A stretch of DNA of 64,000 bases from Stutzerimonas stutzeri (GTDB lineage: Bacteria; Pseudomonadota; Gammaproteobacteria; Pseudomonadales; Pseudomonadaceae), in the NCBI RefSeq assembly GCF_024448895.1, contig NZ_JAMOIC010000014.1, positions 62,001-126,000 of the forward strand, written 5' to 3'. This document shows positions 55,282-64,000 of this stretch, piece after piece. Position 1 is the stretch's first letter. Each line of letters opens with the position of its first letter. Position numbers and translations under genes: made by a program. Under the pieces are notes generated by a model. It had not been told where the DNA came from. It made no database searches and was given only the letters and a program-made list of their open reading frames with translations.

Positions 55282-55324
55282 GCACCAGTAGCTCAGCTGG
55301 ATAGAGTACTGCCCTCCGAAGGCA
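55282..55324 (+). pseudogene. 5' half of a tRNA-Arg gene
   Basis: Forty-odd bases (GCACCAGTAGCTCAGCTGGA... through CTCCGAAGGC) match the start of the intact tRNA-Arg(CCG) 103 bases downstream with one change (T for C before the anticodon stem). The similarity stops just after the anticodon loop. The T arm and acceptor 3' side are missing, so it cannot make a tRNA. Confidence 0.85.
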
Positions 55325-55384
55325 ATACTCACCGAGTTGAGAAGGGTGTCAGCTAATGGTCAAATAGACCGCCGCAACACATGC

Positions 55385-55461
55385 GCACCAGTAGCTCAGC
55401 TGGATAGAGTACCGCCCTCCGAAGGCGGGGGTCGTGGGTTCGAATCCCGCCTGGTGCGCCA
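55385..55461 (+). tRNA. tRNA-Arg (anticodon CCG)
   Basis: 77 bases. Acceptor GCACCAG pairs with CTGGTGC; D arm begins TAGCTCAGCTGGAT; anticodon stem CCGCC/GGCGG holds the loop CTCCGAA, anticodon CCG; T arm GTGGGTTCGAATCCCGC; encoded G-CCA end. All arms pair. This tRNA type is a common integration site, and accessory DNA begins downstream. Confidence 0.96.
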
Positions 55462-55881: not shown

Positions 55882-56160
55882 ATGAGCAACCCGCGTTATC
55901 CCGAATAATTCAAAATCGAAGCAGTCAAACAGGTGACCGAACGAGGTCTGCCAGTGGCGGAGGTAGCTGCTCGTTTGGGCATGTCGACCCACAGCCTGTA
56001 TGCCTGGGTTAAGCGCTACAGCAAGCCCCAAGAGCGGCGCGCGCAAGAGGACGATCAGCAAGCTGAGCTGCGTCGTCTTCGTACCGAACTCAAGCGCGTG
56101 ACCGAAGAGCGAGACATCCTAAAAAAGGCCGCCGCGTACTTTGCCAAGGAGTGCGGCTGA
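55882..56160 (+). pseudogene. IS3 OrfA with an early stop codon
   Basis: 92-codon helix-turn-helix and leucine-zipper protein that binds the element ends. ATG 55882 follows AGGAGGA. Codon 9 (55906-55908) is TAA where the homologous position should be a glutamate or other sense codon (PRYPE-stop-FKIEAVKQV). The rest is open and includes LPVAEVAARLGMSTHSLYAWVKRY. The A-AAA-AAG slip heptamer is at 56121-56127 in the correct frame. A GTG at 55933 could restart translation, lacking the HTH start. Confidence 0.85.
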
Positions 56161-57032
56161 AGTACGCCTTCATCAACCAGCTATCCGCTGACTATTCGGT
56201 TCGCCGCCTGTGCCTGACGCTGAAAGTACATGCCAGTGGTTACTACGCGTGGCTGGCTGAACCGAAGTCGGCACGAGCCAAGGATGATCAACGCCTGCTT
56301 GGACTGATTAAGCACGCGTGGCTAGAGAGCGGCGGTGTGTACGGCTACCGCAAAATCCACGACGACCTGCGTGAGCCTGGAGAAGCATGCGGCAAGCATC
56401 GTGTTGCTCGACTGATGCGCTTGGAAGGGCTGCGCTCACAGACAGGGTATCGTCGCCGACCGGGCCGCTATGGTGGTAAGCCTCCAGCGGCTTCACCGAA
56501 TCATCTGGAGCGCCGATTCAATGTCACCGAACCCAACAAGGTCTGGGTCACGGACATCACCTTCATCCGCACCTATGAGGGCTGGTTGTATTTGGCGGTG
56601 GTGCTCGATCTGTTCTCGCGGCAGGTAATCGGTTGGTCAATGAAACCGCAGATGACCAGCGACCTGGCTATTGATGCGTTGCTGATGGCAGTTTGGCGGC
56701 GTAAGCCAAAGCAGGAAGTGATGATTCACTCAGATCAGGGGAGCCAGTTCAGCAGCGGCGACTGGCAGAGCTTCCTGAAAGCCAACAACTTGCTTGGCAG
56801 CATGTGTCGGCGCGGCAATTGCCATGACAACGCAGTAGCGGAAAGCTTTTTCCAGCTGCTGAAGCGGGAACGGATCAGGCGAAAAATCTATAGCACCAGG
56901 CAGGACGCACGCGCTGATGTGTTCGACTACATCGAGATGTTTTACAACCCAAAACGCCGACACGGTTTCAACAACCAGCTGTCACCAGTAGAGTTTGAGA
57001 AGCGACATTTACTGAGCCTGGGAAGTGTCTAA
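56151..57032 (+). CDS. IS3 OrfB, DDE transposase domain
   Basis: About 293 residues, normally made only as a -1 frameshift OrfAB fusion. HTH_21-like N terminus (IKHAWLESGGVYGYRKIHDDL), then DDE core with D in WVTDITFIRTYEGW, second D in IHSDQGSQFSS and E in NAVAESFFQLLKRE. The frame is intact, but expression of active fusion is doubtful because of the orfA stop. Confidence 0.9.
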   Translation: MRLKYAFINQLSADYSVRRLCLTLKVHASGYYAWLAEPKSARAKDDQRLLGLIKHAWLESGGVYGYRKIHDDLREPGEACGKHRVARLMRLEGLRSQTGYRRRPGRYGGKPPAASPNHLERRFNVTEPNKVWVTDITFIRTYEGWLYLAVVLDLFSRQVIGWSMKPQMTSDLAIDALLMAVWRRKPKQEVMIHSDQGSQFSSGDWQSFLKANNLLGSMCRRGNCHDNAVAESFFQLLKRERIRRKIYSTRQDARADVFDYIEMFYNPKRRHGFNNQLSPVEFEKRHLLSLGSV

Positions 57033-57230: not shown

Positions 57231-57371
57231 ATGAATAAGCCATTGACCGACCTGCTGCGCCAAGGAGCGCGAGACCTGATCCAGCGGGCTGTGGAAGCTA
57301 TGCTGGTGGCTGGCCTATTTGAGACCAGCCCCGCCGTCACCAACCGACACAATAGGCCTACTTATGGTTAG
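57231..57371 (+). pseudogene. N-terminal fragment of an IS256-family transposase
   Basis: 46 codons start MNKPLTDLLRQGARDLIQRAVEAML, which resembles the N terminus of IS256-type transposases (…LLREGARxLIQQAxEAEL). The match ends at about residue 27, then runs into unrelated codons and a TAG. No DDE region follows, so this is a remnant. It overlaps the 3' end of the following minus-strand gene. Confidence 0.7.
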
Positions 57372-58053
57372 GCGCCATATAGGCCTCAATGACCTTCATT
57401 CCCACATAAAACACGCTAGCCGGGTGAGTGACTCGCAGCGCTGATCCGTCGCGAAATTTGTACACTTGGTAAAATTCTTGCTCCCCACGTCCCCATAAAA
57501 ACTGTGAATCTAAGTACCCCCATTCAAATTCTGCTGACCGAACTTTTTCCTTCACTAAGATCTCGATCTCCTCTCGTGGGAGACCATCTGTTGCAGCCAG
57601 AATCCTGTATGCATCAAGGGGCTGCAGCTCACGCGCCCGGTTAGCCCTAAGCGCCTCCTGAGCACTCTTGACGTCTTGCCCCATAAAGCAGCCCAGCCAC
57701 TCGCACGGCCCTTCGAGATAGGAGATCATCCATAAATCTCCATCCGCATCACGCCAAAGCTGCGAACGGCTAGAGCATCTGTCCTGCCCAGGCTCTACTG
57801 ATGTCAGACTGAACGGCAGGACCAAGCCGGTTCCATATGGCGATTCCCATCCTCTACACAAGGTAACGCCTAGCCTGCCAGACCGCCCGGGGAAGAATTC
57901 AGTGTGCCCATTTTCCAGTATCATACCGCGCTCCTTATATCGGTAACCGTTACTCCCTCCAGCATAAGCGACTGAAATTTCTGAGCAGCCGAAGTCGTTG
58001 CACTTACTCCAACCTAGGCTGAGCAGAGCCGCTGGCCTAAGCATGCCCTTCAT
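57358..58053 (-). CDS. Hypothetical protein of unknown function
   Basis: 231 residues without a signal peptide or helices. Cysteine-rich N-terminal third (SKCNDFGCSEI, LCRGWESP, DRCSSR, GPCEWLGCF), then a helical C-terminal part. I recognise no family. It starts inside the stop of the CARF-like fragment (ATGA), and base composition is lower in GC than core genes, consistent with transfer. A ribosome site is not obvious. It may be a fusion product or orphan. Confidence 0.55.
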   Translation of the reverse strand: MKGMLRPAALLSLGWSKCNDFGCSEISVAYAGGSNGYRYKERGMILENGHTEFFPGRSGRLGVTLCRGWESPYGTGLVLPFSLTSVEPGQDRCSSRSQLWRDADGDLWMISYLEGPCEWLGCFMGQDVKSAQEALRANRARELQPLDAYRILAATDGLPREEIEILVKEKVRSAEFEWGYLDSQFLWGRGEQEFYQVYKFRDGSALRVTHPASVFYVGMKVIEAYMAPNHK

Positions 58054-58418
58054 AGCGAACCGCCAGGGCTGAGCAGAATGGAGAGCTGATTGGCGGAAGT
58101 ATTCAGCCGCTTTAAATGCTGACTGGCGGCCTGGTAGATCTCGCCGAAATGAACGGGGGAAGACAGGAAAAAGTAATGCGCGGTGATGGGTACATCGACC
58201 TGCTGGCGCAGCCAGGCCAGGTAGGGCTCCACTAGCTCGGAGGGGTATGAGCAGAGCAGTTCGACGCTATCGAAGGACACCGTGTTCAGCGTCGCCAGAA
58301 TCGGGCCTGCCTCAGCACCTGCAACTGCCTTGAGATCATTCCCGCCAACCCAGCTGGCCAATACGCACTGCTTCTTTACCACTGTCCCTGTACTCCCGAC
58401 CTCCCTATTGCCCATCAA
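58050..58418 (-). pseudogene. Truncated N-terminal CARF-like domain of a sigma-54 regulator
   Basis: 122 residues. ASWVGGNDLKAVAG, ILATLNTVSFDSVELLCSYP and YFFLSSPVHFGEIYQAASQHL followed by ILLSPGG resemble the N-terminal Rossmann-like sensor of RtcR-like sigma-54 regulators, where the run continues past SPGTP into an AAA+ domain. Here it stops right at SPGGSL. I infer a truncated regulator. The family assignment is from pattern memory. Confidence 0.45.
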
Positions 58419-58624: not shown

Positions 58625-58909
58625 TTAGTTAGCCAATAAGCTTTCAAGCTTCTCGATCAGAAAGTCCAGCGGGCTACGGCCCTCCAGGCGCTTTTCGAAC
58701 ACTTCGTTGCGGTGGTAGGCGACCCAGGTCTCGAGGGCATGCCGGTTATCCTTCTCGTAGCCGGAGCCGAGGACGCAGATAAGCTCGGTGCCATGGGGGT
58801 TCTCAAGGTAGTGACTCATAGCTGAAGCCAGATGCTTGAGGTACTTATGCTCGCGGGCCTCCATAGATGGATGCAGAGGGGTCACGTTGTCGCATTTGAT
58901 CAGTTTCAT
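58625..58909 (-). CDS. Small hypothetical protein beside the integrase
   Basis: 94 residues, hydrophilic, no signal peptide. HKYLKHLASAMSHYLENP and RHALETWVAYHRNEVFEKRLEGR suggest helices. GGAG lies before the ATG. It follows the integrase gene by 11 bases on the same strand and is probably co-transcribed. Family not recognised; perhaps a small regulator or cargo of the island. Confidence 0.6.
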   Translation of the reverse strand: MKLIKCDNVTPLHPSMEAREHKYLKHLASAMSHYLENPHGTELICVLGSGYEKDNRHALETWVAYHRNEVFEKRLEGRSPLDFLIEKLESLLAN

Positions 58910-58920
58910 GATGGAACTCC

Positions 58921-60081
58921 TCAGGCCTTGAGATTGGCTTTGATCAGGTTGTCGAAGGCACTGCCATCACGGCGGGTCAGGTTGGGCACATAGCGCGAAT
59001 AGACACGGAACAGCATCTCGGTGGTGGTATGCCCCATCTGCCGGGCGATCCACTCCGGGTTTTCACCAGCCGCCAACCACAGGGTCGCGGCTGTATGACG
59101 AGTTTGGTAGGGGCGCCGCCGCCGCAACCCCAGGTGCCGCAGCAGCGGGTACCAAACCCGGTCGTTGATGTTGCGGTATGCGTGCGGCGTACCTTCGCGG
59201 GTGCAGAAGACGAACTGCCCACTGCCGGTTTTCTCGCGATGGCCGATGAGCGCCTGATAAACCGGCTCGGACATATCGATCTCACGCTGCGAACCGTCGT
59301 TCTTGGTGTAGTCGAGCTTGCCGCCCACCCAGGTCTCACGGATCAAAATCTGCCGCCGCTGAAAGTCGACGTACTTCCACTGCAAACCATCAATTTCGGC
59401 CGTCCGCATGCCGGTGAAGAAACGCACCGTGTAGTAGTTGCGGAAATCGTCACGCACTGTGCCGAGGATCTGCAGCACCTCATCCAGAGTGAAGGGCTCC
59501 ACGTCTGTCTTGGGGACTTTCAGTGATTTGATGTTGAGGTATGGCGAGGTAAACTCGAAGCGGTCAGCTGCCTCACTAAGGATCATGCGCAATGGCGTCA
59601 TGATGTGGTTGATTCGCGTCGCTGTCAGACTCTGACCTTTCTGCCCGGGGACTTTGCCGAGTGCCGAGCGGAATGACAGAAGTTCTGCTTTGGTGATGGC
59701 GCTGACCTCTTTCTTAGCGAACTCAGGCAGCAAATGCTTATCAAGGGTAAGGCGCACGGTTTTGGCGTGCGTATCACGCCATTCGACCCTCATCTCCTCA
59801 AACCACAGTTCTGCAAAATCCTTGAACAGTGGTGTTTTCAGCGATGCACAGCCAGCCTGCAGCCGACTGATCTCTAGCACTTTGCTGCTTTGGGGGAAGT
59901 AGGTGGCGTAGTCGAAGCTCCCAAGGGTAATTTCCGCTTCGATGCGCTCCAGGATCTTCTCGAGCTTTTTCCGGTTAGCGGGCGTATCAGGCAGCGTGGT
60001 CTGCTCGCGGCAGCGCTGATCCAGGTAGGTGAAGTCAAAGAACAACTTCTCGTTGTCGGCGCGGGCACGAATCTTACCCAT
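58921..60081 (-). CDS. Tyrosine-type site-specific integrase
   Basis: 386 residues. N-terminal Arm-binding region of the DUF3596 type (GKIRARADNEKLFFDFTYLD), SAM-like core-binding domain, then catalytic domain: Arg in FFTGMRTAEIDGL, Lys near TKNDGSQRE, the box-II YQTRHTAATL (Tyr in place of the first His, seen in this subfamily), His in QMGHTTTEM and nucleophile Tyr in FRVYSRYVP. ATG 60081 overlaps the end of the excisionase-like gene. It should catalyse integration and excision of the island, possibly at the tRNA-Arg. Confidence 0.9.
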   Translation of the reverse strand: MGKIRARADNEKLFFDFTYLDQRCREQTTLPDTPANRKKLEKILERIEAEITLGSFDYATYFPQSSKVLEISRLQAGCASLKTPLFKDFAELWFEEMRVEWRDTHAKTVRLTLDKHLLPEFAKKEVSAITKAELLSFRSALGKVPGQKGQSLTATRINHIMTPLRMILSEAADRFEFTSPYLNIKSLKVPKTDVEPFTLDEVLQILGTVRDDFRNYYTVRFFTGMRTAEIDGLQWKYVDFQRRQILIRETWVGGKLDYTKNDGSQREIDMSEPVYQALIGHREKTGSGQFVFCTREGTPHAYRNINDRVWYPLLRHLGLRRRRPYQTRHTAATLWLAAGENPEWIARQMGHTTTEMLFRVYSRYVPNLTRRDGSAFDNLIKANLKA

Positions 60082-60307
60082 GGCAGATGCCCCCGCCGGC
60101 CATAGGAACCAGCCCGGAAGTCCGCGAGAATTTCTGCATGTCTTCTTCGACGGCTTCCCAGATGAAAAGGATCTTGCGGCCGCCAAAGGGGCGGAAGTAG
60201 TGGATCCCCTCGAGCAGGACTGAATCTTTCAAGCGATTACGGATGGTGCGCGCGTCGTACTTCATGCGCGTGGCCAACTCTTCGGTAGTCAGGTATGTGT
60301 GAGACAT
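60074..60307 (-). CDS. Excisionase-like small DNA-binding protein
   Basis: 77 residues. YLTTEELATRMKYDARTIRNRL is a winged-helix/MerR-like motif as in AlpA or Xis proteins, followed by HYFRPFGGRKILFIWEAVEED. Overlap with the integrase start supports an excision or directionality role. Upstream are palindromic operators shared with a divergent XRE gene. Confidence 0.75.
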   Translation of the reverse strand: MSHTYLTTEELATRMKYDARTIRNRLKDSVLLEGIHYFRPFGGRKILFIWEAVEEDMQKFSRTSGLVPMAGGGICHG

Positions 60308-60455: not shown

Positions 60456-60668
60456 ATGGTCAAGTGCCATTTATCTCGCTTACTGGGCGAGCGGAAGCTG
60501 AAAATCAGTGACGTAGTCAGGGACACAGGGATGAATCGCGGAACCCTCACGCGGCTCTATCACGAGACCGCGCAGCGGGTGGAGCTCAAGGACCTAGAAA
60601 CGATCTGCCAGTACCTGAACTGCCAGGTGGGCGATTTGCTGGAACTGCAGGATGATCCGGAGGGCTGA
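60456..60668 (+). CDS. XRE-family transcriptional regulator
   Basis: 70 residues, one Cro/CI-type helix-turn-helix (RLLGERKLKISDVVRDTGMN, LTRLYHETAQ, LKDLETICQYLNCQVGDLLE). Close in style to YozG-like phage and island regulators. It starts 15 bases after the last palindromic operator, suggesting autoregulation and control of the divergent excisionase-integrase genes. Its end faces the large recombinase with 12 bases between. Confidence 0.85.
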   Translation: MVKCHLSRLLGERKLKISDVVRDTGMNRGTLTRLYHETAQRVELKDLETICQYLNCQVGDLLELQDDPEG

Positions 60669-60680
60669 ATGCCCACCCTT

Positions 60681-63600
60681 TCATGCTCGGAAATGCCAGT
60701 CGATCGAAGTCATCAGAAAGAGGTAGCGCAATGCTGCGCCGGAATGATGGTTCCTTTCCTGATCAGTGAAACCCGCACCTGTAAGGCGTAGCCTAGCGCG
60801 GATCCCGAGGTGCATATTCTCAACAAGCCTGTTCTCGGGCACCTGCTCTATAAACTTCAAACGGGGCTTCCGTAACACTTTTCGCCAAAGGCTTTTGGTT
60901 CGCTTGGGTGTGCGCTCATCGTAAATGATGAACTCAATATCGGCAGAAGGAATGCGCAGCTCAGACAGCACCCATAGGTACTCTCGAACGCTCTGCTCAT
61001 CCTGCCCAGAGTGGAATCGCAGCGTGGTATCGCTCGCCCAGCAGCGCTCGACGAAGTCATCCAGAACCCTGTTAGTTTTTGCCTTATATCTGCCGTCAAG
61101 CAATCGGTAGAGCCGGTCAGCGTAGGCAGCTACGCCAGCTAAACCTCCGTGTCTGGGCGGCCTGGGCACCAGCTCAACTTTACCGTTCGGGTCGCAAGTC
61201 GCCGAACCGCTAAGGCGGTGCTTACCAAGCTGACGGATATACCTTGCCCGCTCCAGCATGGCCGATCGATCCGCATCGGAAAACTCCACCCAGTCCATGT
61301 TGACCGACTGTCCTGATGCTTCCGCGTACGCTTGGTATGCGAGCATGGACGAGATGTCATTCATCCTTGTCAGAGCCCTCCCTTCGCCATTCGATTCTAT
61401 GGGGCTCATCGGGTAGCTGACTTTGCGACGTTTACTGCGTTTGTATACCCCGATACGACCGATGATGCGCCGCATATGGCGGATCTCAGCTGGCAACCCT
61501 GGCGCAGCCAAATCTTCTGGCTTACTTGGCAGGCTGACCCCGGCAATTTTTGCGATGACATGGCCAGGGGGCCAAAACTTGGGCTCCCATTGCCAGCACA
61601 ACGCCGATAGCCAAGACATGCAGTGCACATAGTGCAGCAGCGACGTCTTGGGGCTCGCATGGCCGAGCACAGCGCTGGTGATATGGATTACACGGCGGGT
61701 GGCGGCTTTCCGGGAATGGAAAAACGCATTATTTAACCTTTCTGCATCCAGCAACCACGCCATCGTCTGAGATTGCTCACCGAAGAGAAGTCGAGCGTTC
61801 TCGCATGCCCCTAACGCTGTGGCGGCCAGCTTGAAGGTGAGCCAGGTTGCAGCCGAGTGCCGCAGGTGGTGGTAGTGCATATCGGAGCATCTTGTAACCC
61901 GGCGGAGGGAGGCATGAATTGCAGGTAACAAGGTGGATTCGGAAACCCATCGTGTCTGCAGCTCGGGGATACAGAACAGAAATTCCGAATATGGACTTTT
62001 CTCCTCTTCGTCATCACGCAACCGCGCCAGGCGCTCTATCAGCTGCAGCTCATCTGGCTCGAGCAACACATGGAGTGGCAGCGTACGCGTTGAGTTGCGC
62101 GTTTTGAGCGCACGCTGAGAATGGGGGCGAATATGCAGAGCCGCGGGAAGGTTGAGCGCGGTTCGCTGCTCAGCCGATAGCGGCTTCAGGTTCGGATGCC
62201 GTCTACGCAGTGCAGCTGCACGTGCGGCAGAGAGCGTCGGTAACTGCAGATCGCGGCGCAGCAACTTCAGCGACTCATTACGCCGCAATCCCAGTCGGTA
62301 TCCGAAAATCACCACAGCCTGCGCGACCATAGCAATACGCGGTGAGCGATGGCTTAGCGGGCCTGTGGCCAGGTCTCGCAGCACCTGACGATATTGCTCT
62401 TCATTGATGATCTGGGCATCAACGAACTGAGGCGTTTTCCCAATACCCAATGCGGCATAGGGGCTGATTGGTGGATAGGAGAAGCTGTTTTGCAGGTATC
62501 CATGAAACTCCAGCAGGCCCTTGGCTAGGTTTCTCCTCATTGGCGCCGTGGGTTGTACCTCCAGCAGCGTTTCATACAACTCCTCTAACGCGTCCGGCGG
62601 AACATCTAGAATCGACCCAACAGACAGCAAATTGTCCAATCCTATACCGACGTCTCTAACATAGTTGGCAACCGTTTTGGACTGCAAAGGGTTGCCATAG
62701 AACGAGCGGCCATGAAGCAGAAACGATGCCCAACCGGTGATCAATTCTTCTAGCGTCGTAGGTACCTGCTCAACCTCCAGTACCGAAACCCGTCCTCTAC
62801 GGACCTGCCGACATAACGTCGTCAGCCATCCCGGAACTCGTTGTTCGGGCCTACCCAGCCGATGCTTTTTACGTTTGCTTTTTTGTTCATGATTTGAAGA
62901 CGATCTGTCACCTTGCAGATGCAGCCATGAGTCCGCCAAGACAGAATGCGTCACGTAACCGTATCTGGTGGTGTAATTGATCAACAGCTGCGGTAGCTGC
63001 GTTTGGCGCTTGATACGCAGCAGCTCAAACAGTCGACTGAGAGACGCGGGTTGGCTCTGATTATCTACCCCACCTACGGCCAATGCCGCCTGAATACAGT
63101 GAAGTTTTCCGTCCCTCTTGGACAGATAAGGTCTCAATTCACTTAGATCTGGAGCGCAACGGGACAACAGTGCCAGTGTCATCGGATCTGGGAACCATTG
63201 CCTACTCTCAGCCTCGGATTGCCCACGGATTGAAAGCTTGAGCCGGAACTCTGGTATCCCAGATACCCAAATAATCTGACCTACATCAAGCTGGGTCAGC
63301 GCATTTAGCTGGGGGATGTCCATCAGCGCGCCATAGTAGGCGGCGCTCAGCAGGAGTAGCCCAACCCGGCAGTGGGGGGTGAGTTGCTCCAGGTCGTGTC
63401 TCAGCGCCCGTTCCAGCGAATCGATCACGTCTCGACTGGCTGAGATGTTCTCTGCTGTATACAAGTCGGGATTGATTGGATTTGCGGGACGCCGCGTGTC
63501 GATCGCTATGTGGGCAAGCGGCAGGCTCGGGTTGAATCGCCGCGCCCGGCTTGTTACGTCTCGCAGTGCATTGCGTAATGTCGAGCTTTCAAGCTGATTC

Positions 63601-63794
63601 TCAAGCTCCCGCATCTTTTCGACAGGAAAATTTCTCAGCGAACGTTTACCGCAGAGCCATTCTCCGATGACATTGTTGGAGTCTCTGCAGCGCTCCTTGA
63701 GCGTCTGAAGAAATTCGCTCTTCCATTCTGGATCGTATTTTTCAGGACTCCAAATTGCTGACAGCATTTCCTCAGAAAGGGTCGAAATGGTCAT
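60681..63794 (-). CDS. Very large tyrosine recombinase (GmtZ-like candidate)
   Basis: 1037 residues. Catalytic residues of the tyrosine recombinase fold are visible: Arg in GYRLGLRRNESLKLL (about 500), box II HHLRHSAATWL (about 643), His in LGHASPKTSLLHYVH with the nucleophile Tyr (about 711-721). About 480 residues precede and 315 follow the core, without a domain I recognise. The start overlaps the stop of a second recombinase gene. By size and pairing it resembles the large GmtZ recombinase of Gamma-Mobile-Trio elements; the name is a hypothesis. GC is normal to slightly low. Confidence 0.85.
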   Translation of the reverse strand: MTISTLSEEMLSAIWSPEKYDPEWKSEFLQTLKERCRDSNNVIGEWLCGKRSLRNFPVEKMRELENQLESSTLRNALRDVTSRARRFNPSLPLAHIAIDTRRPANPINPDLYTAENISASRDVIDSLERALRHDLEQLTPHCRVGLLLLSAAYYGALMDIPQLNALTQLDVGQIIWVSGIPEFRLKLSIRGQSEAESRQWFPDPMTLALLSRCAPDLSELRPYLSKRDGKLHCIQAALAVGGVDNQSQPASLSRLFELLRIKRQTQLPQLLINYTTRYGYVTHSVLADSWLHLQGDRSSSNHEQKSKRKKHRLGRPEQRVPGWLTTLCRQVRRGRVSVLEVEQVPTTLEELITGWASFLLHGRSFYGNPLQSKTVANYVRDVGIGLDNLLSVGSILDVPPDALEELYETLLEVQPTAPMRRNLAKGLLEFHGYLQNSFSYPPISPYAALGIGKTPQFVDAQIINEEQYRQVLRDLATGPLSHRSPRIAMVAQAVVIFGYRLGLRRNESLKLLRRDLQLPTLSAARAAALRRRHPNLKPLSAEQRTALNLPAALHIRPHSQRALKTRNSTRTLPLHVLLEPDELQLIERLARLRDDEEEKSPYSEFLFCIPELQTRWVSESTLLPAIHASLRRVTRCSDMHYHHLRHSAATWLTFKLAATALGACENARLLFGEQSQTMAWLLDAERLNNAFFHSRKAATRRVIHITSAVLGHASPKTSLLHYVHCMSWLSALCWQWEPKFWPPGHVIAKIAGVSLPSKPEDLAAPGLPAEIRHMRRIIGRIGVYKRSKRRKVSYPMSPIESNGEGRALTRMNDISSMLAYQAYAEASGQSVNMDWVEFSDADRSAMLERARYIRQLGKHRLSGSATCDPNGKVELVPRPPRHGGLAGVAAYADRLYRLLDGRYKAKTNRVLDDFVERCWASDTTLRFHSGQDEQSVREYLWVLSELRIPSADIEFIIYDERTPKRTKSLWRKVLRKPRLKFIEQVPENRLVENMHLGIRARLRLTGAGFTDQERNHHSGAALRYLFLMTSIDWHFRA

Positions 63795-64000
63795 TTAGCC
63801 TCCTTAACTAGGTGGCTGTTGCGAACCATCCAACCGAGCTCTCTCATCAGCGGCAATAAATACGCATGGAGGCTCTGGACATAAGCGCCAGGACAAAAGC
63901 TTGAGAACGACTCTTGGGGCGCCTCGCCATGCAGCCAGTGCCCCATGAATGCGGCAAGCGTTTCAGGCGGGCACCCACGCTCTGCGAGCTCGGTCCTCAG
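63791..64000 (-). CDS. Second tyrosine recombinase, C-terminal part only
   Basis: The frame enters from the right edge, with 69 C-terminal residues visible. LAAFMGHWLHGEAPQESFSS followed by FCPGAYVQSL has the GHW...Y layout of box III and the nucleophile tyrosine of recombinases that act in pairs or trios. The TGA overlaps the ATG of the 1037-residue gene, so the two are translationally coupled. AAGGAGG at 63803 serves the downstream gene. The rest is outside the window. Confidence 0.7.
   Translation of the reverse strand: MRTELAERGCPPETLAAFMGHWLHGEAPQESFSSFCPGAYVQSLHAYLLPLMRELGWMVRNSHLVKEAK

What the first reader, a model, noticed from the sequence alone, without database searches (positions are those of the whole stretch)
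60681..64000. A 1037-residue tyrosine recombinase coupled to a second recombinase: possible Gamma-Mobile-Trio core
Two adjacent recombinase genes overlap at ATGA. The larger keeps R, HxxR, H and Y residues yet has about 480 and 315 residues of unexplained sequence on each side. GMT elements, known to carry defence and toxin cargo, encode two such recombinases (GmtY, GmtZ) and a third protein GmtX. No third gene follows here on the left, so it or the cargo would lie beyond 64 kb.
Basis: partly seen in the sequence, partly recalled or inferred. Interest (0 to 1): 0.7.

Follow-up and report, generated by a model that had tools for sequence, protein, structure and literature searches.

The report
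Tandem-fold recombinase pair in defence islands
Two coupled genes for very large DNA-recombining enzymes travel, with a standard integrase, inside mobile islands of anti-virus genes that insert into one transfer-RNA gene; one of the two seems to keep its active-site tyrosine in a different fold from the rest of its active site, which would be an unusual enzyme design.

Summary
A 1037-aa protein (A, window 60681-63794, minus) carries the complete R-K-HxxR-H-Y set of a tyrosine recombinase. It is ATGA-coupled to an 833-aa partner (B), of which the window shows 69 codons; I read B beyond 64 kb. The pair is not Gamma-Mobile-Trio: GmtY and its neighbour family pass their cut-offs in 6 other genomes of the genus, not in this one.

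A/B sits in a tRNA-Arg(CCG) island. The left junction is window 55312-55322. In relatives the island spans 27-86 kb; the three whose cargo I sampled carry defence genes. A/B belongs to a widespread, unnamed module, usually small gene-B-A, linked to one IntBPP-1-type integrase family (INT). Island ends track INT, not B. A/B cassettes of about 45% identity sit beside 93%-identical INT DNA, with the break at A's last codons.

B contains a TR-like fold followed by a second TR domain. In 41 homologues the invariant tyrosine (Y551) is in the first; invariant R650, K674, R762 and H785 are in the second: a permuted order.

Best reading: a new kind of multi-recombinase module, working like GInt/SE/GMT but unrelated beyond the recombinase core. 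Its reaction is untested, and the split active site is an inference.

The parts
55282..55322 (+). 5' half of the chromosomal tRNA-Arg, interrupted in the anticodon loop; core CCCTCCGAAGG at 55312-55322 = attL junction
   Evidence: Sequence; two cores 103 bp apart in 9 of 10 left ends examined; many genus alignments break near here
55385..55461 (+). Complete tRNA-Arg(CCG) carried at the left end of the island
   Evidence: ARAGORN; 3' half repeated at the other island end in relatives
55933..57032 (+). IS3-like two-ORF transposase inserted between tRNA and integrase
   Evidence: ORFs; type assigned by eye, no family scan
57358..58418 (-). Two ORFs (231 and 122 aa); the 122-aa one matches ~118 residues of a 504-524 aa island gene in relatives at 88-90%: likely cargo remnant
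58625..58909 (-). 94-aa conserved small gene next to INT (94-98% identical in P. ceruminis, KOS6, MAG)
58921..60186 (-). INT: 421-aa tyrosine integrase with PF12167 arm domain
   Evidence: Pfam; IntBPP-1 subgroup has this domain (PMC8138268, passage)
60074..60307 (-). 77-aa ORF with sub-threshold HTH_17 / excisionase match, overlapping the INT start
   Evidence: 13-14 bits, below cut-off
60456..60668 (+). 70-aa Cro/C1-type HTH regulator, convergent with A
   Evidence: Pfam HTH_26 82 bits
60753..60764 (.). Breakpoint: 92-93% DNA identity to type-2 islands to the left, only scattered short matches to the right
   Evidence: blastn blocks against three islands
60681..63794 (-). A: 1037-aa large tyrosine recombinase, full catalytic set
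63791..64000 (-). B: last 69 codons of an 833-aa tandem-fold TR-like protein; whole gene at L002:3791-6292 (= C14:125791-128292)

Best explanation
This is the recombination core of an integrative defence island at tRNA-Arg(CCG). Shown: the island ends lie in the anticodon loop (core CCCTCCGAAGG) and the island brings a complete tRNA-Arg of its own. Shown by association: a gene pair B-A, in most relatives preceded by a small gene D, goes with one integrase family (INT). Inferred: INT makes the strand exchange at the tRNA. B and A (and D where present) form a co-translated heteromeric recombinase that works with INT on the island, as the extra recombinase-type proteins of GInt and SE work with their ordinary recombinase; the A/B cassette evolves and is swapped separately from INT and the ends, so it contributes something other than tRNA-site recognition, such as synapsis, directionality or a second cleavage. 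Inferred: B arose by tandem duplication of a tyrosine-recombinase catalytic domain; domain 1 kept the tyrosine (Y551) and lost the rest, domain 2 kept R650, K674, R762 and H785, so one active site is assembled from two domains, in cis or between subunits.
Confidence: 0.5

Rival explanations
1. D-B-A is an independent recombination module that rides in INT islands: it recombines sites inside the island, for example exchanging defence cargo, and is not needed for INT's reaction at the tRNA.
For: Island ends track INT and not B; A/B cassettes are swapped with a sharp break at window 60753-60764; cargo lies on both sides of the module in KOS6; the best Foldseek match of A is the integron integrase 2a3v, probability 0.84 but E 0.06.
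Against: INT and A/B co-occur over great distances, more than expected of a free passenger; no internal copies of the right-end motif were found in the islands scanned; separate A/B termini were not systematically sought.
Confidence: 0.25
2. A and B are a conflict or defence system built on recombinase folds (a DNA nickase or relaxase acting on invading DNA), kept as cargo in defence islands.
For: Neighbours include defence genes; strong allelic divergence (about 45%) beside blocks of 93% identity; B's first fold also matches topoisomerase IB.
Against: The intact canonical recombinase site of A; linkage to one integrase family across distant genomes; A and B themselves were not scanned against PADLOC.
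Confidence: 0.13
3. The locus is a Gamma-Mobile-Trio core whose third gene lies beyond the window.
For: Two coupled recombinase-type genes in a defence island; weak core-level similarity of A to GmtY.
Against: GmtY and GmtX models not over cut-off in host and carriers but present elsewhere in the genus; no full-family link; the third gene in relatives is upstream and shows no link to GmtX (hhalign 0.2%).
Confidence: 0.02

Closest known systems
GInt (ginABCD, Tn6571 family)
   Same: Island with one ordinary recombinase, further recombinase-type proteins (GinC lacks the first R) and a small protein; defence cargo in E. coli (PMC5385486 parts 1-2; PMC10121019 passages)
   Different: Different families: full-family hhalign at most 8% except the shared recombinase core of A with GinA, 93-95% (single B domains reach 23-32% to GinA); gin genes form one contiguous operon at an island end, here INT is a separate unit and D-B-A is often inside
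SE (intA-tfp-intB-srap)
   Same: One ordinary and one large recombinase, a recombinase-fold partner lacking the canonical motif, a small auxiliary protein (PMC10214605)
   Different: Best hhalign 23% (A core to one intA); SE ends are imperfect inverted repeats with a 6-bp footprint, here direct tRNA repeats
Gamma-Mobile-Trio (GmtY/Z/X)
   Same: Coupled recombinase-type genes in defence islands
   Different: Different protein families, gene order and sizes
IntBPP-1-subgroup integrase islands (PF12167)
   Same: INT belongs here by its arm domain and uses a tRNA gene
   Different: No D-B-A module is mentioned in the passages I read
RIT and Tn554
   Same: Several tyrosine recombinases per element
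   Different: RIT recombinases are 315-410 aa (PMC10214605 table note); Tn554 has TnpA/B/C; neither was compared by sequence here

Membership tests
Gamma-Mobile-Trio | GmtY (NF040693 over cut-off) | tested here: not met
   Host has only ~21-bit matches, on other contigs; 6 of 56 genus genomes pass
Gamma-Mobile-Trio | GmtX-type third protein (NF040692; identity as GmtX recalled) | tested here: not met
   0 of 5 carriers, 6 of 6 GMT genomes
Gamma-Mobile-Trio | GmtZ | tested here: not met
   A and B against the gene between GmtY and GmtX: no blastp link, hhalign at most 3.3%; no accession-level model found (my recalled NF040694 was another family)
GInt | contiguous ginABCD operon | tested here: not met
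   INT and B-A are separate units, B precedes A
GInt | homology to GinB, GinC, GinD | tested here: not met
   hhalign against 5 GInt-type modules identified by layout: at most 6%; the method is of limited sensitivity without structure (it gives GinC-Tfp 0.1%, INT-GinA 58%)
GInt | direct repeats at ends, circular form | tested here: inconclusive
   Direct tRNA repeats found in relatives; excision not testable
SE | intA-tfp-intB-srap operon | tested here: not met
   Different order; at most 23% to one SE-type module identified by layout
SE | strand-biased recombination without an empty site | not testable with these tools
   needs PCR/sequencing
IntBPP-1-type integrase island | integrase with PF12167 arm domain | tested here: met
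   89.4 bits, cut-off 22
IntBPP-1-type integrase island | island bounded by copies of a tRNA gene end | tested here: met
   9 of 10 relatives tested; in the window only the left end, the contig stops before the right
Tyrosine recombinase (A) | R-K-HxxR-H-Y | tested here: met
   32 sequences: R, K 32; R, H, Y 31 of 31; HxxR His 30 of 31
Tyrosine recombinase (B) | R-K-HxxR-H-Y in this order | tested here: not met
   Invariant order Y-R-K-xxxR-H; HxxR His is N in 35 of 39; a canonical-side Tyr (Y804) exists in 19 of 39, the window's B included
RIT | three adjacent recombinases of ordinary size | tested here: not met
   A and B are 1037 and 833 aa
Tn554 | TnpA, TnpB, TnpC | not tested
   no reference sequence compared

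The most novel reading that the evidence does not exclude
B is a tyrosine recombinase with a divided, permuted active site: after tandem duplication one catalytic fold kept only the nucleophile and the other only the activating residues, so a single polypeptide (or dimer) assembles one working site, an internal version of Flp's trans cleavage (Flp recalled). With A, D and INT it forms a four-protein recombination machine distinct from GInt, SE, RIT, Tn554 and GMT.
Probability: 0.4. Interest if true: 0.8.

Novelty: new variant of a known kind. Interest (0 to 1): 0.6.

Why it matters
Several mobile islands that carry anti-phage genes use sets of unusual tyrosine recombinases whose division of labour is unknown. 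This adds a further, unrelated set, found in 13 of 369 class genomes and 20 of 398 phylum genomes sampled (the host counted in both), with an ordinary integrase as partner and known ends in an anticodon loop, so the role of the large partners can be tested by simple deletions. If B's site really is split between two folds, it shows a route by which a recombinase can be duplicated and divided, and it may explain recombinase-fold partners described elsewhere as lacking the catalytic motif.

Tried and rejected
GMT: rejected on models, gene order and profiles. GInt and SE: proteins compared with five GInt-type modules and one SE-type module on plasmids (fetched; compared); only the shared recombinase core of A matched above 32%. 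These modules were identified by gene layout, not by named reference sequences, and the SE small gene was a guess. Idea that A/B themselves set the tRNA target because N040 and Serpens seemed to lack INT: rejected, both have INT next to the tRNA and ends follow INT. D linked to GinD, Srap or GmtX: no match. Plasmid tblastn of A: none; of B: two distant alphaproteobacterial plasmids, which carry B-A pairs. Phage records with N040's B: none. Viral contigs: one IMG/VR contig, L043, with the same gene row. Foldseek on both whole models gave no E below 0.001. The first profile scan failed for lack of a conserved stretch. Rows dropped before a count: L199 (same element as L198) left out of the B and A alignments, L201 left out of the A alignment; 20 of the 26 places were fetched; a 20-bit match of A in G008 treated as chance and not followed; Avin left out of the 7-island comparison because its INT is interrupted; L201 (1941-aa ORF) counted as without A. 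Novelty searches: searches listed no paper; one search listed one (not opened), two on Azotobacter and another genus (not opened); one, whose passages define the INT subgroup. Absence in print rests on these searches alone.

Full report
OBSERVATION. ORF A (60681-63794, minus, 1037 aa) and the start of the upstream gene are as described. The window is G000:C14:62001-126000 and the contig goes on to 130657, so B could be read whole: 833 aa, followed upstream by a divergent 190-aa multi-HTH gene (C) and, near the contig end, a Tn3-type TnpC fragment. S. chloritidismutans AW-1 carries an identical A and B. A has only a sub-threshold Phage_integrase hit; B has no relevant hit.

NOT GMT. NF040693 (GmtY) passes its cut-off in 6 of 56 same-genus genomes and in none of the five carriers of A/B that I compared; NF040692 behaves alike (6 of 11 genomes given, 0 of 5 carriers). 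These six are the positive control. In the three GMT loci read, the trio is 460-485, 881-1229, 211-226 aa. hhalign of the full A and B families to GmtY/Z/X gives at most 3.3%. Against this: an A profile finds GmtY of L028 at 10 bits, E 0.002, and the A catalytic domain alone reaches 49% to GmtY over 50 columns, which I read as the common recombinase core. The hhalign runs carry no structure and are of limited sensitivity: INT to GinA scores 58%, GinA to SE IntA 99%, GinC to SE Tfp 0.1%.

HOMOLOGUES. Search of relatives: 7 of 58 genomes match A, the host included, one of them a contig-edge fragment and one a doubtful 20-bit match. Named genomes: 11 loci, from Stutzerimonas, Pseudomonas, Azotobacter, Serpens and two MAGs. 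With profiles of B: 13 of 369 genomes of the class, one only at 17 bits (profile of 4) and 20 of 398 of the phylum (profile of 10, including sequences found); the host is in both counts. I fetched 20 of the 26 places; B is followed by A in 17 and fused to it in 1; the other two are a contig edge and a 1941-aa ORF that matches B only. A small ORF of 139-381 aa abuts or overlaps the start of B in 25 of 30 loci examined, absent in the window type, G625, P. ceruminis, Serpens and L183 (in two loci the overlap is 127 nt, probably a wrong B start). By phmmer these small proteins fall into several linked clusters, with a His-Pro near the N terminus in 16 of the 21 that have residues there; no single family could be proved across all, as the common HMM was built from the same sequences.

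INT LINKAGE. INT (58921-60186) has the PF12167 arm domain of the IntBPP-1 subgroup (PMC8138268, passage only). INT-family matches at E 1e-100 occur in 9 of 56 genus genomes; all nine have A or B sequence: six (one a contig-edge fragment), G058 and G060, G070. In the class sample 8 of 12 INT genomes have B (p 8e-11), or 3 of 7 when the five genomes whose INT built the profile are left out (p 2e-4); in those three, INT and B are on different contigs. In loci fetched for B alone, INT lies in the stretch in 9 of 20, two of them the same element in two genomes.

ENDS. In G034 the 3' half of tRNA-Arg recurs 49.3 kb away; in G006, 70.7 kb. A 23-nt probe finds two direct copies around the module in N040, A. 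vinelandii, a MAG, Serpens and P. schmalbachii (N040 has a third, one-mismatch copy 2.8 kb further), and in G070 (86.0 kb) and G625 (41.4 kb). That is 9 of 10 carriers tested; the complete chromosome G007 has one copy only. P. ceruminis, P. alcaligenes, L042's genome, TS44 and the host could not be judged because contigs end. The DNA just inside the right end is conserved and reads ...TGTACCGCATTGCCCTCCGAAGG with small variants. At the left, two cores lie exactly 103 bp apart in 9 of 10 ends examined, not in Serpens: the first is the broken chromosomal tRNA, the second sits in a complete tRNA-Arg brought by the island (window 55312 and 55415). From the halves I infer, for the window type, attP ATTGCC-CTCCGAA-GGCAAT, a palindromic stem around the 7-nt anticodon loop.

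WHO OWNS THE ENDS. Over 21 pairs of 7 islands, right-end identity correlates with INT identity (0.85) and not with B identity (0.07); pairs are not independent. Window and three type-2 islands are 92-93% identical up to 60753-60764 and then show only scattered short matches, the break lying inside the last codons of A. So A/B cassettes are exchanged beside a constant INT. This speaks for INT as the tRNA-site enzyme and leaves A/B another task.

CARGO. Of 16 proteins chosen by eye and given to PADLOC, 15 match something: in KOS6 Wadjet JetC and JetD, Druantia III DruE and DruH, AbiEi, type I R, M and S over most of their length, and three partial matches; in Serpens JetD and type I R and M; in N040 PDC-S37. 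The window's own island has little cargo left on this side: an IS3-like element and remnants of a larger gene.

SELECTION. dN/dS is 0.15-0.18 for A and B and 0.07-0.11 for INT: all are under constraint.

LITERATURE. Read: PMC5385486 parts 1-2 of 6; PMC10214605 part 1 of 10 and passages; PMC10121019, PMC12715929, PMC12774648, PMC8138268 passages. The GMT paper itself did not come up in the library searches; what I say of GMT beyond the models is recalled.

Noticed in passing
L028 (G065:C35:22000-38000): A true GMT-type trio in a same-genus genome lies next to an RND pump gene 99.9% identical to plasmid-borne TMexD2.
   Followed up: partly
L149 (NZ_CP022275.1 11500-18200): A GInt-type four-gene module (429, 576, 679, 140 aa) stands upstream of tmexCD-toprJ on an environmental Citrobacter plasmid.
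   Followed up: partly
window 55312-55461: The island carries a complete tRNA-Arg with its own upstream region, the two anticodon cores being exactly 103 bp apart in 9 of 10 left ends.
   Followed up: yes
G006:C2:1185398 and leftwards: On the outer side of the KOS6 island end, 918 bp are 98.9% identical to the left end of the G007 island, suggesting tandem islands at one tRNA.
   Followed up: partly
L065, L067, L069, L195, L201: Single ORFs of 1278-1941 aa match B, and in L067, L069 and L195 also A: natural fusions.
   Followed up: partly
G007, G015, G005, G058 INT: INT has an in-frame TGA near its C-terminal end; in A. vinelandii CA INT and B are each in two pieces with other ORFs between.
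   Followed up: no
L002:8396-8656: Tn3-family TnpC regulator fragment (NCBIfam NF041282, 112.6 bits) at the contig end.
   Followed up: no
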